Part shown: piece by piece, positions 42,113 through 59,510 of the stretch
How positions within the stretch are numbered: position 1 is the first letter of the stretch
Layout: each line of letters opens with the position of its first letter
From: Phytoactinopolyspora mesophila
GTDB taxonomy: Bacteria; Actinomycetota; Actinomycetes; Jiangellales; Jiangellaceae
DNA length: 64,000 bases
Reading direction: 5' to 3'
NCBI RefSeq assembly: GCF_010122465.1
Contig: NZ_WLZY01000002.1
Coordinates: forward strand, 571,076-635,075
The notes under the pieces: generated by a model
What the model saw: the letters and a program-made list of their open reading frames with translations, nothing else
Told to the model about the DNA's origin: nothing
The model's database searches: none
Translations under genes and position numbers: made by a program

Positions 42113-43768
42113 CTATCGGGCAAATGTGAGGCTTCCGAGGCCCAGCTGATCGTACGTGCTGGCATGGCCGCCGGCGCCGCTCTCGGGGCGGAGACGGGCG
42201 ACCATTTCGGCGACATTCGGCGTGGAGAGCCCGCGGCGGCCCGCATAGTGGCCCAGGATCATCTCCCAGACCGGACGCAACTGGCCACGCTGGTTGGTGG
42301 AGATGACGGTCTGCTGTTGCGGGTCGCAGTTGTGTCCGTTCTCCCAGCGGTAGGTCTCGTATGGAACGCTGTGGCCGTTGTTGTACCGGGCGACGTACTC
42401 CGCACCGGCCAGGAATCGGTTGCCGTCCCAGCCGTACATGTCGTCTCCCTGGTTCCAGGCCATCTCGCAGAGCGCGGCCATCAACCCCACGCCCATGATG
42501 GTGTGTGCCTGGTCGCGTCCGGACTCCTGCCACTGTCCCAGCGACGACGAGTGCAGGTGCCACACCGCGCGGCCGATCGAGCCGTTGCCCGCACCGTGGC
42601 GGAAATACTCCAGGCCCTGCTCGTAGATCGGCCAGTCGTCGCAGAGCGCGCCGATCGCGACCATTGTCGCCATATTGCCGAGCTCCCAGTTCGCCCAGTA
42701 GTGGGTGACGCAGGTGTCGCTGTGGTTGAGCATGAACCAGTTGCTACGCGGGTAGAACTTGTCGAGCATCATGGCCTGGAACCCGGCCAGGTCGAACCCG
42801 GGATAGCCGCGCATCATCTCCGCGGCGTTGGCGAACTGGTAGCCGTTGATTCCCGCCAGCAAGGCCACGTGCTGGTCGCCGCCAAGGTTCTCCAGCGTGC
42901 TCGACCACGCGTTCATGATCTCGACGGATTTGTCGGCGTACCGGTCGTCACCACTGATCTTCCAGCGCAGCGCGGTCTGGTACGCCGCATGCACGTCCCG
43001 CGCCAGCAGCATGAAATTCTCGTTGGTGCCGGCTCCCCGGCGCACTTCCGGCTGCGGCCGCGGCGACCAGCTCAACTGGGCTTCCGGGCTCGCGGTCAGC
43101 TTTTCCCAGCTGCCCAGCCACGGCTGCTCACCCGCCTGCACTTTGGCCACCATCCGGTCGAAGTCCGCCTGGGTGTGCAGCAGACCCGGATGCGTGAATG
43201 TGCGTGAGCCGCCTGCGATGGGGACGAACCGCCAGCGCTGCTGGGGCCCGCCGTGGTCGGTCCACTGCATCGTGCGCGCGCCGTCTGCGGTCGAACTGCC
43301 GTTGTCGAGCGCCTTGCCGCTGTACGCGCAGATCAGCTTCTGGTAGCCGCCGCCCACGTCGACGATCTGCCACCGCTGCTGCGACTCGCCGTTACCGCGC
43401 CACTGGATCACAGAGGCACCGTCTTCGTTCGAGCTGCCGTTGTCGAGTGCTCGCCACGTGCCGCTGTACAGGGCGATCAGCTGATATAGCCCGTCGCCTT
43501 CGTGCGACACCAGCCACCGCTGGGGCAGGCCACCCCAGTGGGCCCACTGGCCGACGTTTGTCGCGTCGGTCGTCGAACGCAGGTTGTCCAGCGCCTTGCC
43601 ACTGAACTCGTTGATCAGGCAGTACGTCCCGTCGGGTACTGCCGCCTGTGCCTGTTGGGCCGAGACGACACTTGCCGTTCCGACCAGTCCTAATCCGGCG
43701 ACCGCCTGGAGCAATGGCCGCCGCCCGATCGTCCTCTTCCGCCCTGCTTTGCCGTGCTGAGCCGTCAT
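42113..43768 (-). CDS. Secreted polysaccharide lyase-like protein: RICIN (CBM13) plus alginate-lyase-fold domain
   Basis: A 551-aa secreted protein. The N-terminus has a twin-arginine-like signal (GRRPLLQAVAGLGLVG), so it may leave through the Tat pathway. Residues about 45-180 form a ricin-type beta-trefoil with three repeats (ALDNLRSTTDATNVGQW, ALDNGSSNEDGASVIQW, ALDNGSSTADGARTMQW), a carbohydrate-binding module of CBM13 type. Residues about 190-550 are an alpha/alpha-toroid of the alginate lyase family (THPGLLHTQADFDRMVAKV, WFMLNHSDTCVTHYWANWELG, with Asn, His and Tyr as candidate catalytic residues). AAAGGAG lies before the ATG. It is on the same strand as the third LacI gene and probably cuts a uronic-acid-containing glycan. 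The substrate is unknown. Confidence 0.85.
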   Translation of the reverse strand: MTAQHGKAGRKRTIGRRPLLQAVAGLGLVGTASVVSAQQAQAAVPDGTYCLINEFSGKALDNLRSTTDATNVGQWAHWGGLPQRWLVSHEGDGLYQLIALYSGTWRALDNGSSNEDGASVIQWRGNGESQQRWQIVDVGGGYQKLICAYSGKALDNGSSTADGARTMQWTDHGGPQQRWRFVPIAGGSRTFTHPGLLHTQADFDRMVAKVQAGEQPWLGSWEKLTASPEAQLSWSPRPQPEVRRGAGTNENFMLLARDVHAAYQTALRWKISGDDRYADKSVEIMNAWSSTLENLGGDQHVALLAGINGYQFANAAEMMRGYPGFDLAGFQAMMLDKFYPRSNWFMLNHSDTCVTHYWANWELGNMATMVAIGALCDDWPIYEQGLEYFRHGAGNGSIGRAVWHLHSSSLGQWQESGRDQAHTIMGVGLMAALCEMAWNQGDDMYGWDGNRFLAGAEYVARYNNGHSVPYETYRWENGHNCDPQQQTVISTNQRGQLRPVWEMILGHYAGRRGLSTPNVAEMVARLRPESGAGGHASTYDQLGLGSLTFAR

Positions 43769-43803
43769 CGTCGAGGCTCCTTTCCTGATCGATGGTCAGC
43801 CAT

Positions 43804-44106
43804 CGACGAGGTCAGCGCAGCGGACTTCAGGCGCCGATGTCGCGGCGTGCGGCGGGTTCACGATCTGGCCGCGTTCGCGTCGATGAGCACGCCGTCGTTC
43901 TGAGCTCACTGGTGACCTGGCTGACGTGGCTGACGAACGCACGTGGTCGGGCCAGTCCTCCTCTTCGAGAATGAGATCGTTGATGGTCGTGCCGCTGGTC
44001 AGGCCGCTGTCGGCGCCCCCGGCGACCGCGATGGGCCCGGCGACCACGATCTCGACCAGTTGCCGGTCGCCGGTGTCGCCGGCGACATAGATCAGGCGGT
44101 GCCCGA
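43804..44106 (-). pseudogene. Decayed C-terminal fragment of a secreted protein
   Basis: The segment reads VGHRLIYVAGDTGDRQLVEIV, then TTINDLILEEEDWPDHV in one frame. After that, recognisable pieces (VSHVSQVTSEL, NDGVLIDANAA, ERGQIVN) scatter over other frames, so at least two indels have occurred. It starts directly after the stop of the LacI gene with no start codon of its own, so the N-terminal part has been lost. Similar tails occur at the C-terminus of secreted glycan-active proteins. It occupies the gap between the lyase and LacI genes. Confidence 0.5.
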
Positions 44107-44109
44107 CCT

Positions 44110-45192
44110 CTAGGTGCCGTCCGGGGTTCTGACCCGGCGGATGGTAGGTGGGGCTACGGAGTCGCGAACGACGATGTGGGTTCCGAGTACGACGTGCTGG
44201 TTGTGGGCGTATTCGTCGCGGTGGATGGCCAGGCGGACGGCCGTGCGGCCGAGCTCGTCGGTGGGGATGTGAACGGTGGTGAGCGCCGGGTAGAGATCGG
44301 AGGCGAAGGGTACGTCGTCGTAGCCCACCACAGAGATGTCCTCCGGGCAGCGCACATCGCTTTGCCGCAGGGCTTGCAGGACACCGGCGGCCACCATGTC
44401 GGTGGCAGCGAAGATGGCCGTCACGTCGGGCCGTTCGGCGAGCAGCCGCCGCGTGGCGGTGAGGCCGAACGAATGCAGAAACCGGCCCTCGATGATGAGC
44501 TCCGAGTCGACCTCGAGACCCATGTCGGTGTGGGCGCGGGTGAACCCATTGATCCGAGCGGTCGTGGTCGTCAGGCTCGTATGAGCACCGAGATATGCGA
44601 TCTTCCGATGACCCTGCGACAAGAGGTGGCTGGTCATCGAATATGCGCCACCCTCATTGTCGTATTCGACAACGGTGGCAGGCACGTCGTCGCCGAGCGA
44701 TGGACGGCCGCACAGGACAAGGCGCGAGCCGGCCTTGTCGAGGCTGTGCGCCAGGTGCACCATGCGATCGCGGTATTCATCGGTCTCGATACCGCCGCCG
44801 ACGAGTATGACGGCGTCAGCGGACTGTTCACGCATGAGATCGATCACGGCCAGCTCGCGCGCGGTGTCGTCATGGGTGGTGCAGACCAGGCACAGCCGCC
44901 CTTCCTCGGTTGCCTGCTTCTCCACGCCCTGCGCAACGTGAGCGAAGAACGGCCCGGTGACGTCGTTGACCACGAACGCGATCGTCTTGGACGTCGCTCC
45001 TTTGAGAGCGCGGGCCTGTGCGTTGGCGACATAGTCGAGCTCGCGCACGGCGCGCATCACTCGTGTGCGCGTCGACGCGGCCACAGGGTAGGTGCCTCCC
45101 AGGACACGTGAGACCGTGGCGGGGGAGACCCCCGCTCTGGCCGCCACATCCTTGACCGTGTAGCGCCGGTCACCATCGCTGCGCATCGTCAT
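44110..45192 (-). CDS. LacI-family transcriptional regulator (third of three)
   Basis: A 360-aa LacI-type repressor. YTVKDVAARAGVSPATVSRVL at residues 11-31 is the helix-turn-helix, and LDYVANAQARALKG is the hinge helix. The sensor domain follows (FVVNDVTGPFFAHVAQGVE, FAATDMVAAGVLQAL, VVGYDDVPFASDLYPALTTV). Its start overlaps the stop of the 2-hydroxyacid dehydrogenase gene by 4 bp (ATGA), so both are in one operon. Two related palindromes at 46219-46236 and 46415-46432 lie in the divergent promoter region and are its probable binding sites. It should control the dehydrogenase, the ABC importer and the lyases. Confidence 0.95.
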   Translation of the reverse strand: MTMRSDGDRRYTVKDVAARAGVSPATVSRVLGGTYPVAASTRTRVMRAVRELDYVANAQARALKGATSKTIAFVVNDVTGPFFAHVAQGVEKQATEEGRLCLVCTTHDDTARELAVIDLMREQSADAVILVGGGIETDEYRDRMVHLAHSLDKAGSRLVLCGRPSLGDDVPATVVEYDNEGGAYSMTSHLLSQGHRKIAYLGAHTSLTTTTARINGFTRAHTDMGLEVDSELIIEGRFLHSFGLTATRRLLAERPDVTAIFAATDMVAAGVLQALRQSDVRCPEDISVVGYDDVPFASDLYPALTTVHIPTDELGRTAVRLAIHRDEYAHNQHVVLGTHIVVRDSVAPPTIRRVRTPDGT

Positions 45193-46196
45193 GCCACCCT
45201 GTCGATATCCGCGGCCGTCACTTGGTGGGCCAGCCGGCGACCATTGACGAGTCGTTCCAGCTCATTCACCACGCTGCGGCCCAACCGTTTCACCTCATTG
45301 CCCTGAGAACCCGCGAGGTGCGGGGTGACGAATACGTTGGGCAGCTCGAAGAGCACGGACTCGGGCGGCAGCGGCTCAGGATCGGTGACGTCGAGCACAG
45401 CGGACAGGCGTCCCGATACCAGCTCGGCGGTCAAGGCCATGGTGTCGACCAGCCCGCCACGTGCCGTATTGACCAACGTCGCGCCGTCGCGCATCATCGC
45501 AAGCCGGTCGCGATCAATCATGTGGTAGGTCTCCGCCGTCTCGGGCGCATGCAAGCTGATCACATCGCAAGTTGACAGCATCTGCTCGAGGCTGGTCAAT
45601 CGGACGCCGAGTTCGGCGGCGTCAGCTGCCTCGACATAGGGGTCGGTCAGCGACACGTCGATGTCGAACGGACGCATCAAATCGATCAGGCGGCGGCCCA
45701 CTCGCGATGCGCCGACGACCCCGACGCGCACGCCGAAGTTGCCGATCCCAGAGATCGCCTGGTCGAGGACGAAGGTGCGGTCCCGCCGATATCGCTCGCG
45801 GTGGAGGAACGCGTGCTTGCCCGACATCAGCACGGTCGCGAGTGTGTACTCCGCGGTGGGAATCGCATTCGCCGCCGCCGCGGACGATACGACGATGGCC
45901 CGTTCCCAGCAGTGGGGTGTGACGTGTGCTTTGACCGACCCGGCGGCGTGCAGAATCGCGCGCAGCCGCGGAGCCTGGTCGAGCGTGTCGGCGTCGAGCG
46001 GCGGACAACCCCACCCCGTGATCAGGATTTCGGTCTCTGTGAGCAGTCGGAGCGCTCGATCCGTGGTGAAGTCGTCAACGGTCACCATCTGGTCGATGTC
46101 GCAGAGCTCGGCGAGACGTTCCATCAACGGAGGCGGGAAGAGGCGCGGGCGATGGATGGCGCGCATCGCGAACAGTCCCTTTGGGCGATGGCTCAC
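45189..46196 (-). CDS. D-isomer-specific 2-hydroxyacid dehydrogenase
   Basis: A 335-aa NAD-dependent dehydrogenase of the phosphoglycerate/formate dehydrogenase superfamily. The cofactor loop appears as RVGVVGASRVGRRLIDLM with an acidic residue after strand 2 (TDPYVE). NTARGGLVDTMAL and VTDPEPLPPESVLFELPNV are the catalytic-domain signatures with the conserved Arg and Glu, and TPHLAGSQG holds the catalytic His. It should interconvert a 2-keto acid and a 2-hydroxy acid, possibly on a sugar acid from the imported oligomer. This last point is an inference from context. A start at a later Met (residue 11) is possible. An operator lies 23-40 bases upstream. Confidence 0.88.
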   Translation of the reverse strand: MSHRPKGLFAMRAIHRPRLFPPPLMERLAELCDIDQMVTVDDFTTDRALRLLTETEILITGWGCPPLDADTLDQAPRLRAILHAAGSVKAHVTPHCWERAIVVSSAAAANAIPTAEYTLATVLMSGKHAFLHRERYRRDRTFVLDQAISGIGNFGVRVGVVGASRVGRRLIDLMRPFDIDVSLTDPYVEAADAAELGVRLTSLEQMLSTCDVISLHAPETAETYHMIDRDRLAMMRDGATLVNTARGGLVDTMALTAELVSGRLSAVLDVTDPEPLPPESVLFELPNVFVTPHLAGSQGNEVKRLGRSVVNELERLVNGRRLAHQVTAADIDRVA

Positions 46197-46218
46197 AAAC
46201 CTGCTCCTGTCGTCATCA

Positions 46219-46236
46219 GTAGCAAACGTTTTCTAC
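46219..46236. promoter_or_regulatory. LacI-type operator upstream of 2-hydroxyacid dehydrogenase
   Basis: GTAGCAAACGTTTTCTAC is an 18-bp palindrome with a single mismatched pair and the central ACGT of many LacI-type sites. It shares eleven consecutive bases (AACGTTTTCTA) with the site at 46415-46432. Confidence 0.75.
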
Positions 46237-46356
46237 GATAGTCACCGACGTCTGGAACGTCAATGATCCGACGCAGCGCTTGCCCGAATCAAAGGGAAAA
46301 CTCGTTGACCTGCGGATTCGATGCGACACGTCGGTGAGGCGAGGGGAAATGTGACG

Positions 46357-46368
46357 CGTTATATAACG
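46357..46368. promoter_or_regulatory. AT-rich palindrome in divergent promoter region
   Basis: CGTTATATAACG is a perfect 12-bp palindrome, followed by a second TAACGT at 46375-46380 that is spaced 11 bp from the first. This is the most AT-rich spot of the 46197-46595 gap and may include promoter elements or another regulator site. Confidence 0.4.
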
Positions 46369-46414
46369 TTTATGTAACGTGACCTTGTTCGGTTTGCAGC
46401 TCCACCCGTATGGT

Positions 46415-46432
46415 CGCGACAACGTTTTCTAT
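46415..46432. promoter_or_regulatory. LacI-type operator upstream of ABC importer operon
   Basis: CGCGACAACGTTTTCTAT contains the same AACGTTTTCTA as the site at 46219-46236 but is less symmetric. It lies about 165 bases upstream of the first permease gene, so the third LacI protein could control both divergent operons. Confidence 0.6.
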
Positions 46433-46595
46433 CGACGTGTCTAATGCCCAGAGTGCCTGGGTGCCCGACGGTCCGCGACGGCTTGTGACTCGCCGAGCAA
46501 CGGTGCCGCTGGGCAATACAGGTAGCTACGGCTGGAAGGACGAGTCATGTGCAGACGAGTCGACCGCGATGCTGCCCGGCAGGCACTGAGCCGCG

Positions 46596-47576
46596 ATGGC
46601 TGAGTCGATCCGGACGAGTGGTGACACCCGGCGATCCGGACGTCCGGGCCGCAGGAAGCGCTCCTCGCCTACGGAGCGTGTCTCCTGGTCGCTCGCCCTG
46701 CTGGCGATTCCTGGCGTGGTCTACTTCTTGGTCTTCGCGTACCTGCCGATGGTCGGGCTGATCGTCGCCTTCAAGGACTTCAACGTCTCCGACGGCATCT
46801 TCGGTAGCCCCTGGAATGGGCTGGACAACTTCGAGTACTTCGTCTCTACCGGCGCGGCGCCGCGCATCATCTTCAACACGGTGTTCCTGAACGCCCTGTT
46901 TCTCAGCGCGACGCTGGCATGGGGCCTGCTGCTGGCGATCATGCTGAATGAGATCCGGCTGCATCTGTACAAGCGGGTCACCCAGTCGGTGGTGTTCTTC
47001 CCGTACTTCGTCTCGCCGATCGTCATCAGCGTGATGCTGCAGGTCCTGCTGGCCGGCGTCGGCGGCGAAGGCGGCGCGGTCAACGACATGCTCGGCGTCT
47101 TCAATCTGCCCGATGTGACCTGGTACACCGAGCCCGGTCCCTGGCCATGGATCCTGACGATCGTCAAGGTCTGGCAGCTGGGGGGATACATGTCGGTCAT
47201 CTTCCTGGCCGCCATCACGGCCATCTCGCCGGACGTGTACGAGGCGGGTGTGATCGACGGAGCCAGCCGGGCGCGGATGGCCCTCTCGATCACCGTGCCC
47301 CTGCTACGGCCCACCGCGGCGATCCTCGTAGTGCTCGGGATCGGGCGGATCTTCTACGGGGACTTCGCGATGATCTACGCGATCATCGGGGACAACGGTG
47401 TGCTGTTCTCCACGACCGACGTGATCGACACGTATGTCTTTCGTGCGCTGCGCAGTCTCGGCAACTTCGGCACCACCGCGGCCGTCGGCTTGTTCCAAGC
47501 CGTCCTCGGTTTCATCTTCGTATCCGTCGCGGTCATCCTTCAGCGCCGTTACGCCCGAGAGAGCAGCCTCCTATGA
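46596..47576 (+). CDS. ABC transporter permease (LplB-type)
   Basis: A 326-aa inner-membrane permease with about six membrane helices of a carbohydrate CUT1-type importer. EAGVIDGASRARMALSITVPLLRP is the EAA loop that contacts the ATPase. SLALLAIPGVVYFLVFAYLPMVG and GLIVAFKDFN near the N-terminus are typical of LplB/YtcP-associated permeases, which often move oligosaccharides or uronides. The start is the ATG at 46596. Its stop overlaps the start of the second permease (ATGA). No ATPase gene is present in the locus, so a shared MsmK-like ATPase elsewhere must power it. Confidence 0.93.
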   Translation: MAESIRTSGDTRRSGRPGRRKRSSPTERVSWSLALLAIPGVVYFLVFAYLPMVGLIVAFKDFNVSDGIFGSPWNGLDNFEYFVSTGAAPRIIFNTVFLNALFLSATLAWGLLLAIMLNEIRLHLYKRVTQSVVFFPYFVSPIVISVMLQVLLAGVGGEGGAVNDMLGVFNLPDVTWYTEPGPWPWILTIVKVWQLGGYMSVIFLAAITAISPDVYEAGVIDGASRARMALSITVPLLRPTAAILVVLGIGRIFYGDFAMIYAIIGDNGVLFSTTDVIDTYVFRALRSLGNFGTTAAVGLFQAVLGFIFVSVAVILQRRYARESSLL

Positions 47577-48586
47577 GCGCCGCGACCAATCACCGAAGGG
47601 CCGGTGCCGGCAACGTGGAACAGGAGACCGGTATGGCATCCACTCGCGTGTCCGGGCACGAGTCGGCGCCCGCGACCGTCCCGAGCCGACTGCGGGCGCC
47701 CCGGCGCAGGCGCGGACCTCGAGGCGTGCGGGCCGCCGAACCGTTCACGGTGGTCAGTTACGTGGTGGTCACCCTGTTCGCGCTGTTCTGCCTGATCCCG
47801 CTGTGGATGATCGTGGCGGGCTCGTTCACCGACGAGACCGTTCTCTCCCTCAAGGGCTACAGCCTGTTTCCCGACCCGTTGTCGCTGGATGCGTACAAAC
47901 AGCTGTTTTCCGGCCAGGCGATCGGGAGGGCATACCAGGCGACGTTGTTCATCACCGTCGTCGGGACGGCGCTTTCGGTCTCCTGTACGGCGGGGCTCGC
48001 GTGGGTGATCGCCCGCCGGATGCGCATTGTCAGCCGGCCGCTGACGATCTTCGCGTACCTGCCCCTGCTGTTCAACGTGGGGCTGGTCCCGATGTATCTG
48101 CTGATCACCCAGGTGCTACAGCTACGCAACAGCTGGTTCGCGGTGATTCTGCCGCACATGCTGATGCCGTTCCTGGTGTTCATCACGGTGGCGTTCTTTC
48201 GCCAGATCCCCCAGGAGATCCTGGACTCCGCGCGCGTCGACGGCGCCAGCGAACTGCGGATCTTCTTCCGGATCGTGCTTCCGCTGTCCAAGGCGGTGAT
48301 AGCCGTGATCGCCCTGTTTTATGCCGTTTCGTACTGGAACGAGTGGTTCTGGGCGGTGCTGTTCCTCTCCGACCCCGACAAGTACCCACTGCAGCAATTG
48401 CTGCAGAACATGATCGCGAACGTCACGAACGCCACGATGTTGCCAGGCGGCAACACCCCGACGATCCCGGTCTATCAGCTACGGCTGGCATTGACCGTGG
48501 TCACCATCGGACCGGTCATCCTCGCCTACCCCTTCGCCCAGAGGTTCTTCGTGAAGGGCCTGACCCTTGGCGCCACCAAGGGCTGA
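47573..48586 (+). CDS. ABC transporter permease (LplC/YtcP-type)
   Basis: A 337-aa second permease of the importer, with six predicted membrane helices after a basic N-terminal stretch of about 55 residues. DSARVDGASELRIFFRIVLPLSKAV is its EAA loop. GSFTDETVLSLKGYSLFPDPLSL is typical of the YtcP group. It starts in a 4-bp ATGA overlap with the first permease gene and precedes the binding-protein gene by 53 bp, forming a clear operon. Confidence 0.93.
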   Translation: MSAATNHRRAGAGNVEQETGMASTRVSGHESAPATVPSRLRAPRRRRGPRGVRAAEPFTVVSYVVVTLFALFCLIPLWMIVAGSFTDETVLSLKGYSLFPDPLSLDAYKQLFSGQAIGRAYQATLFITVVGTALSVSCTAGLAWVIARRMRIVSRPLTIFAYLPLLFNVGLVPMYLLITQVLQLRNSWFAVILPHMLMPFLVFITVAFFRQIPQEILDSARVDGASELRIFFRIVLPLSKAVIAVIALFYAVSYWNEWFWAVLFLSDPDKYPLQQLLQNMIANVTNATMLPGGNTPTIPVYQLRLALTVVTIGPVILAYPFAQRFFVKGLTLGATKG

Positions 48587-48639: not shown

Positions 48640-50205
48640 ATGTCTCGCCCCAATACACTCTCTCGTCGAGGTTTCCTGGGAATGTCAGGCAGCCTCGGTA
48701 TCGCCGCCGCGTTCGGGCTGTCGAGCTGCGGTAACAACTCCGGGTCCGGTTCCTCGGGCGGCGGAGGCGGCGGCACGGTGACGGCGATCCTGCCCAGCAC
48801 GACGCCCACCGGCTGGAACGCCGTCCTGGAACGGGTCAACGAGAAGCTGGAGGCCGACACCGGGCTGACGCTTCGGGCCGAGTTCATCAACTGGTCGAGC
48901 TACCAGGAACAGACGCTGCTGAAGTTCACCGCCGGAGAGAGCTTTGACAACGCCCTTCAGGCGCTGTGGCTCAACATGGCCCAGTTGCAGCAAGACGGCG
49001 CGCTCGCCGACCTCACCGATCAATTGGACAACTACGAGAACTTGAGCGCGACCCTTGATAGCCGGCTGATCGAATCCAACTCGTGGGACGGCCAGCTATG
49101 GGGCATCCCGCAGGCCAACAGCGCGGGCCGGTGCCAGCACTTCGCTGTGCGCCAGGACCTCGCCGACGAGCTGGGCTTCTCTGAGATCACCGACTACGAG
49201 ACCCTGGAGCGATTCTTCTACGCGGTCAAGGAGAAAGACGACGGCACCATCCCGTTCGGCGCCGGCTCCGGCAGCGGGTATCTCAACGTGATGCCTGTGC
49301 CCGCAGGGATGCTCAACGCCGCCTCCTGGGAGGACCCGCACACCATCGCCAGGGCGTTCACCGGCCGGGGGATGTACTTCGTCTTCGCCCGGGACGCTGC
49401 CGAGACCGGATCGAGCCGCCCCGTTCCGTTCTGGGAGGACGAGGGGGCACTCGATGCGCTGTACCGGATCCGCCAGTATTACGAGGACGGCCTCATCAAC
49501 AAGGACGCCATCAACTCCGACTCGGACACCATCAAGAGCCAGTGGACCGCCGGCAAGTACGCGGCGACCTGGGCGATGACCGATGGCCTGACGAGCAACG
49601 ACATGCCGGCCCTCACCAGGTCTGTACCAGGGGCGATGCTGGCCAACGTCATCCCGTACACGGGCGGGCTCGGAGCCTTGCCCAACCAGACCTTCCAAGC
49701 CGACAACCTCGTCGTCGTCAACGCCAACGGCGGCAACGTCGAGAACGCCCTGACCCTTCAGGACTGGGTCTCCATCCAAGAGAACCACGACCTCATCGAG
49801 TACGGCATCGAAGGAACCGACTGGCAACCGGTCGGCGAGGACAAGTTCGAGTCGCTCAGCGACTACGAGTTCCCGGGGTACGCCCTGTGCTGGCGGGCAA
49901 GCCTGCAGCGAAAGTCGTCGTACATGACCGAGTCGGAAGAACGAGTGTTCAGCTGGGCCCAGGACTTCGACAATTTCACCGTCGACCCGTTCGCCTCGTT
50001 CATCCCCCAGACCGAGCCCGTGGGCCGGGAGATCTCCGCGATGGAATCGGTGATCTCCGAGTTCGCCAACCCGCTGTACTACGGCGTCGTCGACGTTGAC
50101 GACCAACTCGACAAGCTCAAGAGGGCCGCCGAGAACGCCGGCCTCAACAAGCTCCAAGCCGAAATGGAGAAGCAGGCGGACGAGCACCTCTCCAAGAACG
50201 CCTAG
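48640..50205 (+). CDS. ABC transporter extracellular binding protein (Tat lipoprotein, LipO-like)
   Basis: A 521-aa extracellular solute-binding protein of the large LipO/LplA-like type. The N-terminus SRRGFLGMSGSLGIAAAFGLSSC is a twin-arginine signal ending in a lipobox Cys at about residue 31, so it is exported folded and anchored as a lipoprotein. A Gly/Ser linker follows. GGLGALPNQTFQADNLVVV and WLNMAQLQQDGALADLTD are typical binding-protein segments. GAAGGAG lies upstream of the ATG. It should deliver oligosaccharide ligands, produced by the neighbouring lyases, to the two permeases. Confidence 0.92.
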   Translation: MSRPNTLSRRGFLGMSGSLGIAAAFGLSSCGNNSGSGSSGGGGGGTVTAILPSTTPTGWNAVLERVNEKLEADTGLTLRAEFINWSSYQEQTLLKFTAGESFDNALQALWLNMAQLQQDGALADLTDQLDNYENLSATLDSRLIESNSWDGQLWGIPQANSAGRCQHFAVRQDLADELGFSEITDYETLERFFYAVKEKDDGTIPFGAGSGSGYLNVMPVPAGMLNAASWEDPHTIARAFTGRGMYFVFARDAAETGSSRPVPFWEDEGALDALYRIRQYYEDGLINKDAINSDSDTIKSQWTAGKYAATWAMTDGLTSNDMPALTRSVPGAMLANVIPYTGGLGALPNQTFQADNLVVVNANGGNVENALTLQDWVSIQENHDLIEYGIEGTDWQPVGEDKFESLSDYEFPGYALCWRASLQRKSSYMTESEERVFSWAQDFDNFTVDPFASFIPQTEPVGREISAMESVISEFANPLYYGVVDVDDQLDKLKRAAENAGLNKLQAEMEKQADEHLSKNA

Positions 50206-53200: not shown

Positions 53201-54901
53201 CGGAGCCGCGCGGTCAACGTCACCCACTACTACAAGGTCACGCCCGTCAACGCCGTCGGCGACGGCCGCCCGTCCAGCCCGGTAGCAGCGCAGCTGACCG
53301 TTCCGCACACGCCCTCGCTGCTCAGCACTGACTGGCGCGACGATCTGCTCGGTACCGTCGATGCCGGCAAGACCACGGTTGACGGCGACACGATCACCAT
53401 CTCGGGCGGCAGCGGATCCGGCTTCGGCGGCGGCGACGACAGCGTGCTCGACGAGCGTGGTCGTCCCGACTCGATGGTGCTGGTGAGCACGCTGGCCCAG
53501 GGCAGCGTCTCGGTGTCGGCGCAGTTGACCGCTGGCCAGGACGCGGCGCGTGGCGTCATGCTGCGCGACGAGCTCGCCGACGTCGCACGGTACGTCTACC
53601 TGGGGGTTGGTGCGGACGGCAACCTGACGTTCGGCACCCGCAACCGGCTCACGCAGGCGGACATCAGTGAGACCCACCTCAAGATCGATCCCCGTGACCT
53701 GACACCACGTAGCCCCTACACCGTGCCGCTCGACGGCGAGTACGCGGCCGAGGAGTACCCGTACGTGCGGCTCGTGCGGCTGGCCGACAGTCACACGGTG
53801 CTCGCTCAGGCCTCCGCCGACGGGCAGCACTGGCAGCAGCTGGGCACCCAGAAGGTGCCGATGGTCGACGTGATCAACGCCGGCGTGGTGGCCACGGACG
53901 AGGCCAGCTTCGACGACGTCGCGGTCGAACCCGTCGACGACGAGTTGCCGCTGGTCACTGGATGGTTCAACGAGCAATCTGGCACCATCCGGTGGACCAA
54001 GCCGACCCACGCGTATGCGTTCGACCTGTACCGCACCCGCGATCCTGAGCTCGCGCGGACCGATCCGCGCGACGACGACGCATGGGAGCTCGTGGCCGGC
54101 GGCGTGCGCTCGTGGTCGCACGAAGACGTTGTCTACGGCGGCGAGATGTACTACAAGGTCGTGGCCAGGTACGTCGACGGTCGCACCACGGTGTCGCCGG
54201 AGCCGGCGCGCATCGCGGGAGATTCCCTGGAATCCGTGGTGCGGGAAGCCCGGTCGCTTGACCCCGAGGATTTCACGGCGGTCAGCTGGGCGGCGTTCGA
54301 CGCCGAGATCACGGCGGTGGAAGAGGTCATGGATGATCCTGGAGCGGACGAGGGAGCGCTGATCAAGCGCGTCTACGATGCTTACGACCTGCTGGTGGCG
54401 GTGTACCGCGACAGCTTCGAGGAGTCCGACCCGGATGTGTGGGCGCCCAGCGGCTCGGCGCCGTCCACCTACACCCGGACCATCGACGACTCCTACGGGC
54501 GGACGGGCCAGCGGTCGCTGCACTTCACCAGCACCGACACCACCTATGACGCTTCACATAACTTGTGGTTCCGCAGTAACAAGGGCGGGTCGCCGATCAC
54601 GGCGACGCCCGGCACCACGTACAAGGTGTCCTTCTGGTACCAGCTCAGCGACTACGAGCACGGCTCGGGTGTCGGCGCCTATTACTTCATCCGCTCGTAC
54701 AGCGGCGGGAGCGGCGTCGGGACCGATCAGCGCAACTGGATCCGCGCCGAGGACACGGCGCCGGGGGAGTGGAGGTACTTCGAGCGGGAGTACACCACTG
54801 AGGGCGGCAGCGTGGACAACGTGGTGATCGACTTCGGGTTCCGCGGTTCATCCGGTGAGTTCCGGGTGGACGACCTGCGGGTGGAGCCGGTCGAGGAGTA
54901 G
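50267..54901 (+). CDS. Very large secreted multidomain protein of unrecognised family (possible polysaccharide lyase)
   Basis: A 1544-aa secreted protein from the ATG at 50267 (GGAGG upstream). Visible parts: a signal peptide/hydrophobic segment at about 12-35; an N-terminal beta-rich region to about 225; a long helical region rich in Trp, Tyr and acidic residues, about 230-700 (TRRYYGDVKSLGSGGHQSDW, THHGLTRENGYVGNYGEST, YGTGVDTGRGLLYASLEQYM); and a beta-sandwich about 700-910 (NLFVSVRDGDTRIFGNLHM). Then come a FN3 domain (about 925-1015), a concanavalin-like domain (about 1020-1240), a second FN3-like domain, a small FIVAR-like helical hairpin (about 1330-1395) and a C-terminal carbohydrate-binding module. 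The toroid-plus-sandwich order resembles hyaluronate- or alginate-type lyases, but no family signature was found. Context makes a glycan-cleaving enzyme likely. Confidence 0.75.
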   Translation: MINFRLSNGVGPLFYSLVVCTVLAVVTGLGQAVPASPSPESASSGAPDRFLDVVDLGDTESEAEHDFEADESSVADGANGQAARVAHRTDGSTSYLQDLHMTMRVDPARQNYVTLKLWGGDTTSATTIILVDGEQANYQSTADYEPIRTGTGDGAVEGRFFYATSMLPLSSTQGRSTVQITIRTLTSSVDSSRPYYEIYTHTQPWVEPAEGDLTGYEPEPAVAPGMSKEEEQELVDGVRTLQIDLFDSLSTRSDNDANFAMPISRYQDELRFYSEALLMDWSPARTAEEKRAGLERIFQSIDVYTRRYYGDVKSLGSGGHQSDWGGYYAALGEALYIVENLIADDEIYGTAEFEAFLDEPFETETEDGPNSIAGVDWEGGELSRGEAWERVLKANFDFARSRLSYIYNQMMYTYEGAWKAHEGLRVIGSDFYEGKERSHRIVGESLGWEPFLGEEVLVGPEGEDLDVYHSLFQHDQNVVYTDDYLQVIMKGHARSKLDDNGEVVRRRPYGEHYTGITHHGLTRENGYVGNYGESTNYLPSWFFRTLGHEGDEAINDEILKLALRNNHARGQTRYPGVNGNGERVMYMQQVVDDRNTAYPGKIAYGTGVDTGRGLLYASLEQYMAEYEERYAGAEWDEYWEYAREASGWAQQQLMDNQYFNHFGHVRSNHKYDLRLDQTYAYLTETRDDYDRFDSVAARAVLPQTDLDRYTDEELSELGVSREDHEDSYAWVDIDNLFVSVRDGDTRIFGNLHMRNRGFARNGRLHVMEPTHDHIVQVATEGVLQYEDYTLRSPAVEQAMFYDRSTGYDASLALAGELSPIAYQPGVGTTVRDNWNEDTPYSGYPDLISTRYGDYFIAVNTTREVYGNTKTHTVELPAGFTGDTVDDLVSGAELTVDDGTISIEAFTAVILDLATTDVAPEAPDAVDVVVATPGAGGVGLTWRAAAGAESYTISRATREGGRYRTIAEGVTGTSHIDDTRSRAVNVTHYYKVTPVNAVGDGRPSSPVAAQLTVPHTPSLLSTDWRDDLLGTVDAGKTTVDGDTITISGGSGSGFGGGDDSVLDERGRPDSMVLVSTLAQGSVSVSAQLTAGQDAARGVMLRDELADVARYVYLGVGADGNLTFGTRNRLTQADISETHLKIDPRDLTPRSPYTVPLDGEYAAEEYPYVRLVRLADSHTVLAQASADGQHWQQLGTQKVPMVDVINAGVVATDEASFDDVAVEPVDDELPLVTGWFNEQSGTIRWTKPTHAYAFDLYRTRDPELARTDPRDDDAWELVAGGVRSWSHEDVVYGGEMYYKVVARYVDGRTTVSPEPARIAGDSLESVVREARSLDPEDFTAVSWAAFDAEITAVEEVMDDPGADEGALIKRVYDAYDLLVAVYRDSFEESDPDVWAPSGSAPSTYTRTIDDSYGRTGQRSLHFTSTDTTYDASHNLWFRSNKGGSPITATPGTTYKVSFWYQLSDYEHGSGVGAYYFIRSYSGGSGVGTDQRNWIRAEDTAPGEWRYFEREYTTEGGSVDNVVIDFGFRGSSGEFRVDDLRVEPVEE

Positions 54902-55049: not shown

Positions 55050-57809
55050 ATGAAGAAAGCCACGAGATCGCGGTTCTGCGCTGCGCTAGCCACAGTAGGG
55101 CTGGGCCTGACCGGATTGGCGGCCGCGCCGTCGTCTACTACCGCGGCAACTCCGGTGACCGGCGCGTACTCGGTACCGGCCGACCTCGTCGAGATTCGCG
55201 AGACGACGAGCGAAGCCGGATTCATCCACCCCGGTGTCGGCCTGACGGCGGACCACCTCGAGAACATGCGGACCCAGGTACACGCCGGTGTCGAGCCGTG
55301 GGCGAGCTACTACGACGCCATGACGCAGACCCGGTACGCAGCCGCGGACTTCACGGCGTCGATCCAGGGCCCGACGGATGAGCAGCCGACCAGTACCGCT
55401 TACGACAACGCGGGCATGCGGAGCCGGCAGCACGCGGACAGCATCGGCGCGATGACTCAAACCCTGATGTACCTGGTCACCGGTGACGAACTCTATCGCG
55501 CGAACGCGCTGCGCATCATCCGGTCCTGGAGCAGCCTGGACCCGACCCAGTACCGGTACTTCCCCGACGCGCACATCCATACCGGCGTCCCGCTTTACCA
55601 GACGCTGGTCGCGGCCGAGATCATCCGCTCCACCGAGCCTGTGAACGATGAGCTGGACGGGTACGACCTGCGTTGGACCGCGCGCGACCAGCAGAGGATC
55701 GAGGACAACCTCATCAGGCCCGTCCTCGACACATTCCTGTACTCGCAGAACCGGTTGTGGAACCAGCACCTGTACGGCGTGATCGGCATGGTCGGCGCCG
55801 CCATATTCCTGGACGACCCGGAGCTCTACGCCGAGCGCGTCGAGTGGTTCACCGTCAACTCGACGTATGAGAGCGAACACACCATCAACGGCGGTGACGT
55901 GAACGGCTCCCTGGCCGCGATCATCCGGATCATCGACGCCGACGACCCGTTGAACACCTACGGCGAGGACTTCCTTCAAGTCATGGAGATGGGCCGGGAC
56001 CAGGCGCACGCCGAGGGCGACATCGGCCTGCTGACGGCTCTGGCCCGGATCGTCGACAATCAGGGCACGCGGGTCGACCCCGTTGAGGGGACGGTGTCGA
56101 CCGACCCGGATGCCGTGTCCCCGTACGAGTTCCTGGACAACCGGATCCTTGCCGGCGGCGATGTCTTCGCCGCGTTCATGATGGGCGAGGAGCTGCCCTG
56201 GGTCGACACCTCCGGGGGATCGGGCAAGCTCGCCGAGGCCTACCGCGGACGCCTGCGTGAGCCGCTCACCGAGCTCTACTACCAGTACAAGTATGTCGCG
56301 GACGTGGACGTCGAGAAGGAGGCGCCGCACGTCGCCGAGGTGTACGAGCACCGGGACGGGCCGCTGTTCTACTACGGCTCGAACGTGTTGAACTTCTGGA
56401 ACGAGCGCGGCTCGGACTTCACCGGGGCCGAGTACTGGGTGGCCTTCCCGCCAGAACTCGCCGAGCAGGACATCACGGTCCCGGCGGCCGGCGACGGGCC
56501 CGAGCTCCCCCTGGAGAAGTTCGGCCACACCCTCGGCATGGGCGCCAAACACATGGTTGACAACGCCGGGGAGGCCTTCGTGCGCTTGGACGCCAAGAAG
56601 GACGACGCCCAAGTGGCCGTCCGGCGTGTCGTCTGGGCTGACCGCACCAGCACCGCGCTGGTCGGCGTGCGGGTACGAACGAACGGTACCGCGCTCCTGG
56701 AGGCGGCACGGAACTCGAAGGCCGAGCCGTTCACCACTGTGCAACTTCCCGACACCCATGGGCGGTGGCGTTACGTGTGGTTCGACGTCGACTCCTCGAA
56801 GGTGCCGACGGTGGGTGACAACATCGTGTTCTTCCGCGCAACGGGCGGCCAGGCCCACGTGGATGTCGAGGCCGTGCTTGCGGACGCGAACAGTACACTC
56901 ACCCCGCCGGTTTTCGACGACGGTGCCTCGCTCGACCGCGTCGCAGTGGCGGGGGAGCCGTACACCCGGACCTTCGGCGTGACGGGCTCGGCCGGCAACG
57001 ACGTCGTGCTGGAGCTTCAGGACGCTCCGAAGGGCGCCGAGCTGTCCGATAACGGCACGCTGACATGGCTTCCCGGCGGCAAGAAGAAAGACCGCGGAGC
57101 GCACGACCTGGTCGTTGTCGCCTCTGACGAGCTGACGGACACGGCGCTGGCCGTGACGATCACGGTCGCACCGGACCGCCCGGCGGCGATCAAGACCCTT
57201 GTTGCTGGTCTCGACGCGCCTTCGGCGTACACCACGTCGACCTGGCAACCGGTGGCCGAAGCACGCGATGCGGCCTCGGCGGCCGCCGAGAATGCCGGGC
57301 CGGCGGAGTTCGCGGGTTTACTCGAAGACCTGAGTGTCCGGATCGACAGCCTGGAGCTGCTCAACCCCCGATTGCCGGACGGAACGCTCGACTTTTCCGG
57401 GCTGGTGACGTCTCCGGACCTGTCGCCGGCGATGCTTGCGATCCTGGTCGACGGCGACAACCAGACATTCTGGGGCGACATCCGCCGCCCGAGCGTCCTG
57501 CTGGACTTCGGTGCCGGATACGGCTTCCGCGCCGACGCATTCGGCTGGCTCGCCCGCGACACGTTCCCGGACCGCTCCCACGGCGCAAACGCCTATGGCT
57601 CCAATGACGGAACTACCTGGACGCTACTCACCGAGCACCCCACCGAGGGCGACGACGTGGCGATCGAAACGATTGCCGTCCGCGAGGACGTGCGCGACAG
57701 CCGGTTCCGCTACCTCAAGCTCCAGGTCGACGAGCCAAAGGGTCCGGGGATCTTCTCCATGGCCGACATCCGCATCCACGGCGAACGCATCGAGGCCGGC
57801 CTTGATTGA
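55050..57809 (+). CDS. Secreted alginate-lyase-fold protein with Ig-like and discoidin (F5/8) domains
   Basis: A 919-aa secreted protein. The ATG at 55050 follows AGAGGA and precedes a signal peptide (FCAALATVGLGLTGLAAAPSS). Residues about 50-470 form an alginate lyase family alpha-toroid (FIHPGVGLTADHLENMRTQV, NRLWNQHLYGVIGMVGAAIF, with Asn/His residues in the cleft, and DPTQYRYFPDAHIHTGVPLY). A beta-rich segment at 470-610 and an Ig-like domain of He_PIG type (about 620-705, PKGAELSDNGTLTWLPGG) follow. A helical linker and a C-terminal F5/8 discoidin-like domain (about 770-915) should bind sugar. It follows the 1544-aa gene by 148 bp and precedes the GH43 gene. It likely works with these on the same polysaccharide. 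Confidence 0.82.
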   Translation: MKKATRSRFCAALATVGLGLTGLAAAPSSTTAATPVTGAYSVPADLVEIRETTSEAGFIHPGVGLTADHLENMRTQVHAGVEPWASYYDAMTQTRYAAADFTASIQGPTDEQPTSTAYDNAGMRSRQHADSIGAMTQTLMYLVTGDELYRANALRIIRSWSSLDPTQYRYFPDAHIHTGVPLYQTLVAAEIIRSTEPVNDELDGYDLRWTARDQQRIEDNLIRPVLDTFLYSQNRLWNQHLYGVIGMVGAAIFLDDPELYAERVEWFTVNSTYESEHTINGGDVNGSLAAIIRIIDADDPLNTYGEDFLQVMEMGRDQAHAEGDIGLLTALARIVDNQGTRVDPVEGTVSTDPDAVSPYEFLDNRILAGGDVFAAFMMGEELPWVDTSGGSGKLAEAYRGRLREPLTELYYQYKYVADVDVEKEAPHVAEVYEHRDGPLFYYGSNVLNFWNERGSDFTGAEYWVAFPPELAEQDITVPAAGDGPELPLEKFGHTLGMGAKHMVDNAGEAFVRLDAKKDDAQVAVRRVVWADRTSTALVGVRVRTNGTALLEAARNSKAEPFTTVQLPDTHGRWRYVWFDVDSSKVPTVGDNIVFFRATGGQAHVDVEAVLADANSTLTPPVFDDGASLDRVAVAGEPYTRTFGVTGSAGNDVVLELQDAPKGAELSDNGTLTWLPGGKKKDRGAHDLVVVASDELTDTALAVTITVAPDRPAAIKTLVAGLDAPSAYTTSTWQPVAEARDAASAAAENAGPAEFAGLLEDLSVRIDSLELLNPRLPDGTLDFSGLVTSPDLSPAMLAILVDGDNQTFWGDIRRPSVLLDFGAGYGFRADAFGWLARDTFPDRSHGANAYGSNDGTTWTLLTEHPTEGDDVAIETIAVREDVRDSRFRYLKLQVDEPKGPGIFSMADIRIHGERIEAGLD

Positions 57810-57899
57810 CCGCTGGCGCCGCGACGGTGTTCATGATCGCGATGCAGCGGTGCTCGAGGTGGGGTCACCCCTCGGCAGCCCGACGTAGGAGTTGTTTCC

Positions 57900-59510
57900 T
57901 TGCAGATCATCAACCCTGTACTTCCCGGATTTCATCCGGACCCTTCGATCGTCCGGGCCGGCGACGGGTACATCGTCGCCACGAGCACGTTCGAGTGGTT
58001 CCCAGGAGTACGTTTGCACCGTTCGGCCGACCTGGTCACCTGGAAGCCCGCGGGGCATGTGCTCACCAGCGTTGACCAGCTCGACCTGGCCGGCATTCCC
58101 GACTCCGGTGGCGTGTGGGCACCGTCGCTCAGTTATGCCGGCGGCCGGTACTGGCTCGTCTATTCGGTGTTGCGCACATTGGGCAAGCCGTACAAGGACC
58201 TGGACAACTTCCTCGTGACCGCCCCGGCGCCGGAGGGGCCATGGTCGGACCCGGTGTACTTGAACTCCAGTGGGTTCGATCCGTCCCTGTTCCACGACGA
58301 CGACGGCCGCCACTACCTGCTGAACGTGCGTTGGGATCACCGGGAGGGGCAGCGCCGTTTTGGTGGCATTCTGCTCCAGGAGTTCGACGCCGCTGCTGGG
58401 CGTCTGATCGGGCGGCCGCAGGTGATCATGGCCAGCGAGGAGCTGATCGAGGGCCCGGACTTGTACAAGCGGGGCAGCGAATACTTCCTCATGCTCGCCG
58501 AAGGTGGCACTGGAGCGAACCACGGTATCCGGATGGCTCGGGCTCCGTCGGTTGACGGGCCGTACCAGCCGGATGACGTTGCCCTGCTGACCACCAGGGA
58601 CGTGCCGGCGTACCCGCTGCAGAATGCCGGACATGGTTCGTTGGTCGAGACGCCGGGAGGCGAGTGGTACCTTGCGCATCTCGCCTCCCGCCCGCTGCGC
58701 ACGCCCGAGGGCCCACGCAGCATTCTCGGCCGCGAGACGTGTCTGCAGAAGGTGGTCTGGGCCGACGACGGCTGGCTCCGGCTTGCTCATGGCGGTCATC
58801 ATCCGGCCCTGACCGTGGCCGTGCCTGACCGCGCAGCCGGCGCCGCCGTCGTCCCCGAGCCGATGGGGTTGGCCTGTGCCGAGGAGTCTGGGTTCGACCC
58901 CGGGGGTCTCAGCGAGGGATGGGCCAGTCTGCGTCGTCCGACCGGTGCCGACTGGCTGGATCTCACCACCCGGCCCGGATGGGCTCGGCTGCGTGGTGGC
59001 CACAGCCTGCAGTCGCAGTTCGCGCAGTCGCTCGTCGCCCGGCGTCTCGTCACCACTCGCTGCACCATCACCACCGCTGTCGAGTTCTGCCCCCGGGACA
59101 TCACCCATATGGCTGGGCTCGTCCTCTACTACGACACCCGCGGCTACTACTACCTCCGGCTCAGCCATGACGACCACCTCGGACGGGTGCTCGGAATCGT
59201 CGCGAACGAGGCGGAGGACACCAGCGAGCACGCCAACATCCCGCTCGACGAAGGCAGGTGCCCGGTGGTGCATCTGCGCGCCGACCTCGGCGATGCTCGA
59301 CTGCGTTTCAGCTACTCGCACGACGGCGCCCAGTGGACACCCATTGGCCCCGTCTTCGACGCCGGTACCTTGTCCGACGACTACGGCGGGCGGCTTAGGT
59401 TCACCGGCGCCTTCGCCGGGATATGCGCCCAGGACCTCAGTGGTTCCAGCATCTATGCAGACTTCGCCCATTTCACCACCCGCCTGGAAGACAGCGCGCG
59501 GTGGGATTGA
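57900..59510 (+). CDS. GH43 beta-xylosidase (intracellular)
   Basis: A 536-aa GH43 enzyme. It starts at TTG (57900) with AGGAG eleven bases upstream. INPVLPGFHPDPSIVRAGDGY contains the general base Asp of the five-bladed propeller, SGFDPSLFHDDDGRHYLLN the second Asp, and EELIEGPDLYKRG the general acid Glu. The C-terminal beta-sandwich (about 335-530, LASRPLRTPEGPRSILGRET boundary, then AGLVLYYDTRGYYYLRLSHD) is the GH43_C2 domain typical of beta-xylosidases of the XynB type. No signal peptide is present, so it acts on imported oligosaccharides, releasing xylose or a related sugar. It ends the locus, 91 bp after the lyase gene. Confidence 0.92.
   Translation: MQIINPVLPGFHPDPSIVRAGDGYIVATSTFEWFPGVRLHRSADLVTWKPAGHVLTSVDQLDLAGIPDSGGVWAPSLSYAGGRYWLVYSVLRTLGKPYKDLDNFLVTAPAPEGPWSDPVYLNSSGFDPSLFHDDDGRHYLLNVRWDHREGQRRFGGILLQEFDAAAGRLIGRPQVIMASEELIEGPDLYKRGSEYFLMLAEGGTGANHGIRMARAPSVDGPYQPDDVALLTTRDVPAYPLQNAGHGSLVETPGGEWYLAHLASRPLRTPEGPRSILGRETCLQKVVWADDGWLRLAHGGHHPALTVAVPDRAAGAAVVPEPMGLACAEESGFDPGGLSEGWASLRRPTGADWLDLTTRPGWARLRGGHSLQSQFAQSLVARRLVTTRCTITTAVEFCPRDITHMAGLVLYYDTRGYYYLRLSHDDHLGRVLGIVANEAEDTSEHANIPLDEGRCPVVHLRADLGDARLRFSYSHDGAQWTPIGPVFDAGTLSDDYGGRLRFTGAFAGICAQDLSGSSIYADFAHFTTRLEDSARWD

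What the first reader, a model, noticed from the sequence alone, without database searches (positions are those of the whole stretch)
42113..59510. Candidate new polysaccharide utilisation locus with three lyase-like secreted proteins
A LacI-controlled divergent locus combines a RICIN/alginate-lyase-fold enzyme, a 1544-aa unknown, a 919-aa alginate-lyase-fold enzyme, an LplB/LplC/LipO importer, an intracellular GH43 beta-xylosidase and a 2-hydroxyacid dehydrogenase. The usual uronate catabolic genes (KDG kinase, KDPG aldolase) are absent, so the product may be handled by a different route. This is the best candidate for an undescribed system.
Basis: partly seen in the sequence, partly recalled or inferred. 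Interest (0 to 1): 0.72.

Follow-up and report, generated by a model that had tools for sequence, protein, structure and literature searches.

The report
Lyase locus with undescribed polysaccharide-cutting enzyme
An actinobacterium carries a sugar-controlled gene set that appears to cut an acidic polysaccharide with an enzyme family not named in the libraries searched, import the pieces and finish them with an unexpected dehydrogenase instead of the usual enzymes.

Summary
The gene set is real and its borders hold: one LacI-controlled, divergent polysaccharide-utilisation locus (window 42113-59510). Two secreted proteins are alpha/alpha-toroid lyase relatives (PF05426). The 1544-aa "unknown" (u1544) belongs to a family without catalytic-domain match in Pfam, NCBIfam, PHROGs or PDB sequences; it rings in 6 of 393 class genomes (own included, one only partial) and in Kribbella, Nonomuraea, Sphingobium and Halocatena. 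Context (GH88 beside relatives in Sphingobium and Halocatena, PL8 in its slot in Arthrobacter) points to a uronate lyase; weak profile similarity to PL8 is the only sequence hint, and its AlphaFold model failed. LacI and a D-2-hydroxyacid dehydrogenase homologue recur in 7 of 7 loci (a fragment in one); the dehydrogenase is the only non-secreted enzyme family found in all. Its subfamily also lies near PL8 and heparinase-like genes. Two published Actinobacterial xanthan loci also have a hydroxyacid dehydrogenase (subfamily untested) and lack GH88. The window's genome has no GH88/GH105-family match and no KduI, but has a KDPG aldolase. Most likely: a new variant of a lyase/importer locus with a new lyase family and a dehydrogenase-based uronate route. 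Substrate unknown.

The parts
42113..43768 (-). PLa: secreted (twin-arginine-like leader, read by eye) ricin-type beta-trefoil + PF05426 alpha/alpha-toroid lyase-like protein, 551 aa
   Evidence: Pfam RicinB 83 bits, Alginate_lyase 44.3 bits (cut-off 22.2); AlphaFold model of the PF05426 part pTM 0.69, Z about 19-23 to PL17/PL5/PL38/PL35
44110..45192 (-). LacI-family regulator
   Evidence: Pfam LacI + Peripla_BP_3; homologue in 7 of 7 u1544-family loci
45189..46196 (-). D-2-hydroxyacid dehydrogenase (DH) of a distinct subfamily, no signal peptide seen by eye
   Evidence: Pfam 2-Hacid_dh_C 160.8 bits; subfamily gap 238 vs 158 bits; tree
46220..46235 (.). LacI operator-like palindrome TAGCAAACGTTTTCTA upstream of DH
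   Evidence: like sites upstream of DH in the other four loci scanned
46416..46431 (.). second operator-like site (3 mismatches) upstream of the importer operon
46596..47576 (+). ABC permease (LplB-like)
   Evidence: Pfam BPD_transp_1
47573..48586 (+). ABC permease (LplC-like), start overlaps the stop of the first permease
   Evidence: NCBIfam UgpE/GlcU-type permease hits, below cut-offs; reading frame
48640..50205 (+). lipoprotein-like solute-binding protein with DUF3502 (LipO-like)
   Evidence: Pfam DUF3502 63 bits, SBP_bac_8 33 bits
50267..54901 (+). u1544: secreted multidomain protein; core 50414-53011 (beta N-terminal part, helical middle, beta C-terminal part by a poor model), fn3-like, CBM-like tail; founder of an unnamed family
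   Evidence: no Pfam/NCBIfam/PHROGs catalytic match, no PDB sequence match for the core profile; relatives; invariant residues; model
55050..57809 (+). PLb: secreted PF05426 lyase-like protein, 919 aa
   Evidence: Pfam 24.3 bits, cut-off 22.2; aligns with PLa, 25% over 334 residues
57900..59510 (+). intracellular GH43 beta-xylosidase-like protein
   Evidence: Pfam GH43 291.8 bits + GH43_C2; nearest solved 1yrz xylan beta-1,4-xylosidase

Best explanation
An acidic, probably uronic-acid- and xylose-containing polysaccharide is cut outside the cell by beta-elimination: by u1544 (a lyase family not in the libraries searched, inferred to have an alpha/alpha-toroid plus beta-sandwich plan) with the PF05426 proteins PLa and PLb. 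The unsaturated oligosaccharides bind the LipO-like lipoprotein and enter through the LplB/LplC permeases (ATPase encoded elsewhere, inferred). Inside, GH43 trims beta-xylosyl residues. The unsaturated uronyl unit, an alpha-keto acid once released and opened (4-deoxy-5-keto-uronate), is handled by the D-2-hydroxyacid dehydrogenase in place of KduI/KduD. LacI represses both transcripts through TAGNAAACGTTTNCTA-like operators. Shown: genes, families, recurrence of the set, operator-like sites, no genome match to PF07470 and no KduI. Inferred: beta-elimination by u1544, the chemistry of DH, LacI binding, the substrate.
For: Recurrent set: LacI and a DH homologue in 7 of 7 u1544-family loci (window, Kribbella L001, Nonomuraea L002, G314, G313, G431, G246; in G313 DH is a 102-residue piece); importer genes in 6 of 7 by clustering, in G313 only 26-30% permease homologues about 12 kb away and a binding-protein fragment at the contig end. 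Lyase context: the Sphingobium relative lies with GH88, a KduI/IolB-family protein and a TonB receptor, Halocatena relatives with GH88 and sulfatases or mannonate dehydratases, as annotated; in two Arthrobacter plasmids SBP-permease-permease-DH is followed by a PL8 lyase. PLa fold. DH subfamily: within about 10 kb of u1544-family, PL8 or heparinase-like genes in 10 of 14 members of five genomes, versus 0 of 20 regions around generic paralogues. No PF07470 match in the genome, only IolB for PF04962. Paenarthrobacter 6C and Microbacterium XT11 xanthan regions have a hydroxyacid dehydrogenase and no GH88 (PMC12772297); whether theirs is of this subfamily was not tested.
Against: u1544 has no confident similarity to any lyase: against 3 PL8 rows nothing (E 0.074), against 66 rows E 0.0021 but only 13% probability (five decoys E 0.1 or worse, but with 3-11 rows each, so not fully comparable); its AlphaFold model is unusable (pLDDT 37.9). 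Eight of the ten lyase-linked DH genes were known from earlier calls and led to the choice of genomes; of the six looked at blind two have a lyase-like neighbour (p 0.046; one of these two is just under the Pfam cut-off), one has DUF2264, and in three none was found. Only 9 of 60 PL8 regions hold a DH homologue, versus 0 of 20 control regions (p 0.10), and the genome's own PL8 locus has none. A review (PMC10881899, passages) says that in Microbacterium a beta-glucosidase releases unsaturated GlcA, so DH need not replace GH88 itself. Of six genomes searched that have PL8 without DH near it, four lack PF07470 too, so its absence is not tied to DH.
Confidence: 0.55

Rival explanations
1. u1544 is a glycoside hydrolase, and only PLa and PLb (or one of them) are lyases; DH then serves a general role such as hydroxypyruvate or keto-acid reduction.
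For: No lyase signature is recovered by any library used; the AlphaFold model is uninformative; GH43 and, in some loci, GH36 show that neutral sugars are also handled.
Against: PL8 takes the slot beside the same importer + DH order in two Arthrobacter plasmids; GH88 and KduI/IolB-family neighbours in Sphingobium. No lyase query matched near 20 generic dehydrogenases.
Confidence: 0.25
2. The lyases act exo-wise outside and release free unsaturated uronate; it is taken up as a monomer, so no GH88 is needed, and the importer carries only the neutral remainder.
For: No PF07470 match in the genome; PLa resembles PL17 and PL15 lyases in fold (Z up to 22.8 and 19.7; exo action of these recalled except where the entry title says so), though equally PL5 and PL38 ones.
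Against: A LipO/Lpl-type importer (oligosaccharide role recalled) accompanies the family in 6 of 7 loci; exo action cannot be read from the models.
Confidence: 0.2
3. DUF2264 (GH154-type, name recalled) encoded elsewhere in the genome does the work of GH88, and DH is unrelated to uronates.
For: DUF2264 lies in the genome's second DH + heparinase-like locus (G000:C13), and homologues lie in G314 C10 and G246 C2 near DH subfamily members.
Against: No DUF2264 hit among the ten window ORFs of the locus; DH is present with and without it.
Confidence: 0.2

Closest known systems
Xanthan utilisation region of Paenarthrobacter ilicis 6C and Microbacterium sp. XT11 (PMC12772297: section 15 read whole, otherwise passages)
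   Same: ABC importer, secreted lyase, hydroxyacid dehydrogenase, LacI regulators (in 6C), no GH88
   Different: uses PL8, GH9, GH38 and GH3; the window has u1544, two PF05426 proteins and GH43 and none of those four in the locus
PL8 lyase family (hyaluronate/chondroitin/xanthan lyases)
   Same: PL8 stands in the place of u1544 beside the same importer + DH order in two Arthrobacter plasmids; weak profile similarity over 505 columns
   Different: no Pfam Lyase_8 hit; the Asn/His/Tyr motifs (recalled) are not recovered by the profile alignment; the genome has a separate true PL8
PF05426 alginate-lyase superfamily; CAZy PL5, PL17, PL38
   Same: PLa and PLb match PF05426; PLa model Z about 20-23
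Bacterial DEH/DKI reductases and KduI/KduD
   Same: proposed metabolic place of DH
   Different: a 2019 paper lists bacterial DEH reductases as SDR or beta-hydroxyacid dehydrogenase family (PMC6426991, passages); DH is a D-isomer 2-hydroxyacid dehydrogenase

Membership tests
PL8 | match to the Lyase_8 / Lyase_8_N profiles (u1544) | tested here: not met
   no such Pfam hit at E 0.01; the genome's real PL8 is at G000:C2:186008
PL8 | common fold and ancestry of the toroid (u1544) | tested here: inconclusive
   hhalign against 66 PL8 rows: score 39.5, E 0.0021, probability 13%; five decoys with 3-11 rows score 13.6-22.7; against 3 rows E 0.074; AlphaFold failed
PF05426 alginate lyase superfamily | score above Pfam cut-off (PLa, PLb) | tested here: met
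   44.3 and 24.3 bits, cut-off 22.2; the second is marginal
PF05426 alginate lyase superfamily | alpha/alpha-toroid fold (PLa) | tested here: met
   model pLDDT 60.9, pTM 0.69, middling confidence; top rows Z 20-23, 285-312 aligned residues, rmsd 3.6-4.8
PL5 / PL17 / PL38 (CAZy) | membership of one named CAZy family | tested here: inconclusive
   best rows of all three lie within 2 Z units at 8-15% identity; CAZy models were not available
GH43 | GH43 domain with beta-xylosidase C-terminal domain | tested here: met
D-2-hydroxyacid dehydrogenases | NAD-binding domain profile and catalytic Arg/Glu/His | tested here: met
   Pfam 160.8 bits; NTARG, DPEP and TPHLAG stretches read, the motif itself recalled
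Canonical unsaturated-uronide route (GH88/GH105, KduI/KduD) | GH88/GH105 in the genome | tested here: not met
   0 matches to PF07470 (taken to cover both, recalled); the search rings in 3 of 14 control genomes
Canonical unsaturated-uronide route (GH88/GH105, KduI/KduD) | KduI in the genome | tested here: not met
   the only PF04962 match scores 285 bits on IolB (cut-off 205) and 21.6 on the KduI model (cut-off 250)
Canonical unsaturated-uronide route (GH88/GH105, KduI/KduD) | KDPG aldolase in the genome | tested here: met
   G000:C7:2469-2996, 141.7 bits to PF01081
Canonical unsaturated-uronide route (GH88/GH105, KduI/KduD) | KDG kinase and KduD in the genome | not tested
   no call made
Actinobacterial xanthan utilisation region | PL8, GH9, GH38 and GH3 in the locus | tested here: not met
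   no such Pfam hits among the ten ORFs tested

The most novel reading that the evidence does not exclude
The dehydrogenase subfamily is the missing intracellular enzyme of uronate-lyase catabolism in Actinomycetota: an NAD-dependent D-2-hydroxyacid dehydrogenase that reduces the alpha-keto acid formed from the unsaturated uronate (or acts on the unsaturated uronide itself), replacing GH88/KduI/KduD. It is shared by loci built on different lyase families, and u1544 founds a further polysaccharide lyase family among them.
Probability: 0.3. Interest if true: 0.78.

Novelty: new variant of a known kind. Interest (0 to 1): 0.6.

Why it matters
If right, it gives a sequence-defined candidate for a gap that the xanthan literature states openly (no GH88 in Paenarthrobacter 6C or Microbacterium XT11; PMC12772297), a further protein family for reduction of lyase-derived keto-uronates beside those listed in 2019 (PMC6426991), and a new lyase family with members in actinobacteria, a Sphingobium and a haloarchaeon. 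The dehydrogenase could then serve as a marker for uronate-lyase loci that profile libraries miss or score at the edge, as with the heparinase-like locus at G000:C13.

Tried and rejected
A viral-contig scan found no relative among 36 candidate stretches. PHROGs and NCBIfam gave nothing for u1544; PADLOC was not used. The similarity by eye of u1544 'YVGNYGE' to PL8 'YTGSYG' was not recovered by the profile alignment and is not used as evidence. Complementarity of DH with GH88 was looked for and not shown: of six genomes searched with PL8 but no DH near it, four (G425, G443, G656, G085) lack PF07470 and two (G310, G313) have it. The L065 match to the u1544 family falls in a carbohydrate-binding part, as I read it, not the core, so L065 is counted as heparinase-type only. 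L135's dehydrogenase falls outside the subfamily in the tree; without it the counts are 8 of 60 PL8 regions, and 6 of 13 regions with importer homologues versus 2 of 47 without.

Limits of the counts. The grouping of PL8 regions by importer homologues was made after seeing the data. The 60 PL8 regions were picked by hand from the places listed, leaving out fragments, some contig ends and some second copies. The generic-DH control used 20 of 34 listed places; L224 starts inside its gene and overlaps L234; its lyase queries included the heparinase-like proteins found at subfamily loci, and a lyase of another family would be missed. In the three blind DH regions without a lyase (L215, L217, L220) only tblastn with those queries and Pfam on 5 ORFs (3 of L215, 2 of L220, none of L217) were run. 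In the tree 18 of the 20 generic regions gave no row (matching stretch under 190 residues, a stop in it, or no match).

Papers: searches, of which I saw the listings with starts of abstracts; beyond that PMC12772297 (section 15 whole plus passages), and passages of PMC11790493, PMC10881899, PMC12021255 and PMC6426991. That no print describes this locus or this role of DH rests on those searches only.
Full report
Observation. The starts that fit leaders read by eye give its sizes: u1544 50267-54901 (1544 aa), PLb 55050-57809 (919 aa). The flanking genes tested are unrelated. LacI and DH overlap by four bases on the minus strand (probably one transcript), the importer, u1544, PLb and GH43 run the other way, and PLa lies behind LacI. 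The genome is G000, 99.46% complete, 27 contigs.

What recurs. u1544 has relatives at 54-56% identity in Kribbella steppae and Nonomuraea cypriaca, at 52-54% in two genomes of the window's own genus and at 46% in G431; a second branch at 22-28% (alignment) includes G246, a second G313 copy, Sphingobium sp. V4 and Halocatena marina plasmids. With a seven-row profile the family rings in 6 of 393 genomes drawn from the class, the window's own included and one (G500) only over 116 profile positions. I compared the window genes with six other loci and clustered genes of all seven: LacI and a DH homologue occur in 7 of 7, though in G313 DH is a 102-residue piece. Importer genes cluster in 6 of 7; in G313 there are only 26-30% permease homologues about 12 kb from u1544 and an 85% identical fragment of the binding protein at the contig end beside the second copy. 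PF05426-type homologues of PLa or PLb occur in the window, L002, G314, G313 and G246 (five of seven), and were not found in the stretches held of Kribbella and G431. GH43 homologues occur in the window, L002, G431 and G246 (four of seven), and beside the second G313 copy. In G314 the order is PLa, SBP, permeases, u1544, DH, LacI, then a HipA-type gene; open frames on the PLa side were not all tested. No enzyme family other than DH was found in all seven loci.

Regulation. TAGNAAACGTTTNCTA-like sites lie upstream of DH in the window (0 mismatches, plus one with 3 nearer the importer), L001 (2 and 3), L033 (2), L034 (2, where DH itself is a fragment) and L002 (3): five of five loci scanned. By shuffles the expected number is 0.01-0.17 per stretch, and 2 of 100, 0 of 100, 3 of 200, 4 of 200 and 6 of 100 shuffles reach the observed counts. 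The pattern came from the window, and the L002 site is weak. G431 and G246 were not scanned with it.

The secreted proteins. PLa and PLb match PF05426 and each other (25% over 334 residues). A three-row AlphaFold model of the PLa toroid has pLDDT 60.9 and pTM 0.69. Its best solved matches are lyases with one exception, a dermatan sulfate epimerase, among the 50 rows shown: PL17, PL5, PL38, PL35, PL15, PL40 and others (some family names recalled; Foldseek; VIA-align Z about 16-23, 8-15% identity). So the superfamily is well supported and the CAZy family is not. u1544 has no catalytic-domain match. Twelve family rows, the window's included, share among others D253, W275, R335, N359, Q360, E475, Y482, G483, D683, Y805 and N810 of the core. 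Against 66 PL8 rows its profile scores 39.5 (E 0.0021, probability 13%), against five decoys 13.6-22.7, against PLa/PLb 16.5 and against three heparinase-like rows 19.5; the other profiles have far fewer rows than PL8's. Against three PL8 rows nothing was found. This is a hint, not a proof.

Context for lyase function. In Sphingobium the relative stands with a TonB receptor, a KduI/IolB-family protein, GH88 and a LacY-type carrier; in Halocatena with sulfatases, GH88 and an epimerase or with two mannonate dehydratases, as annotated. In Arthrobacter sp. ERGS1:01 and A. alpinus plasmids the order SBP, permease, permease, DH is followed by PL8, that is, a known lyase in the place of u1544. A third plasmid (L065) has DH, GH36 and an importer facing a Hepar_II_III_C protein. 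In G431 one DH lies in the same open frame as a GH36 domain, and in Nonomuraea GH36 is next to DH.

The dehydrogenase. In five genomes 48 places match the window's DH; 14 score 238 bits or more and the next 158. In the tree 25 lyase-locus and subfamily rows separate from two generic rows and L135 (99/99), and four of seven u1544-locus DHs, the window's among them, form a supported group (97/97). Of the 14, five lie in u1544-family loci, three within about 8 kb of PL8 and two next to heparinase-like proteins (27.5 bits, and 23.7, just under the 24-bit cut-off): 10 of 14, against 0 of 20 regions around generic paralogues (p 8e-6). Eight of the ten were known before and led to the choice of genomes; of the six looked at blind, two have a lyase-like neighbour (p 0.046), one has DUF2264 without a lyase match, three have neither by the tests run. 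Among 60 PL8 regions 9 have a DH homologue (8 of the subfamily) against 0 of 20 control regions (p 0.10); where importer homologues are present it is 7 of 13, elsewhere 2 of 47 (p 1.3e-4, grouping made afterwards).

What is missing. The genome has no PF07470 match (GH88/GH105) and its single PF04962 protein is IolB, but it has a KDPG aldolase. Of ten genomes with a DH homologue near PL8, six have no PF07470 match; in the other four, and in G313 and Kribbella, the matches lie on other contigs or megabases away. Four of six genomes with PL8 but no DH near it lack PF07470 as well, so the absence is a habit of these bacteria rather than a partner of DH. The authors of the Paenarthrobacter xanthan study write that they cannot name the enzyme that removes glucuronic acid and that Microbacterium XT11 also lacks GH88, and both regions hold a hydroxyacid dehydrogenase, 76% identical between them (PMC12772297). 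A review credits a beta-glucosidase with release of unsaturated glucuronate in Microbacterium (PMC10881899); no GH3 was seen in the window locus. Neither passage that I saw assigns the later step, from keto-uronate onwards.

Mechanism. I propose beta-elimination outside, import of unsaturated oligosaccharides, removal of xylose by GH43, and reduction of the 5-keto (alpha to the carboxylate) of 4-deoxy-5-keto-uronate by DH. That this keto-uronate is an alpha-keto acid, the substrate type of D-2-hydroxyacid dehydrogenases, is established chemistry (recalled); that DH acts on it is inference. How the unsaturated uronyl unit is released from the oligosaccharide here is open.

Substrate. GH43 of the beta-xylosidase type in four of seven loci and GH36 in two suggest a branched acidic heteropolysaccharide of plant, fungal or bacterial origin; glucuronoxylan alone would not need GH36. 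I cannot choose further.

Verdict. Observation confirmed, interpretation partly supported; a new variant of a known kind (lyase/importer locus) with a secreted family not found in the libraries searched and a recurring, unexplained dehydrogenase.

Noticed in passing
G000:C13:49500-69000 (L216): A second lyase-type locus in the same genome: LacI-like regulator, heparinase-II/III-like protein (just under the Pfam cut-off), DH subfamily member, DUF2264 and importer genes.
   Followed up: partly
L037 (G304), 10490-13906: A PLb relative (89% identical) beside or running into a stretch 80% identical to the C-terminal part of u1544, inside one open frame: domain exchange between two genera of one family.
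   Followed up: no
L034 (G313), 11236-16489: u1544 relative split over three frames and DH reduced to a 102-residue piece: decayed locus or sequencing errors.
   Followed up: no
L040 and L064 (Halocatena marina plasmids): Several paralogues of the u1544 family in a haloarchaeon, beside sulfatases, GH88 and mannonate dehydratases; annotated as hypothetical.
   Followed up: partly
L075, L125, L126, next to DH: A phosphodiesterase-HAD fusion protein near DH in three PL8 regions; a phosphorylated intermediate is conceivable.
   Followed up: no
window 40503-41130: A short gene pair read by eye as an antitoxin-like and a PIN-like protein; not tested.
   Followed up: no
G000:C2:186008-186940 (L074): The same genome also has a true PL8 lyase beside permease homologues but without the dehydrogenase.
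   Followed up: partly
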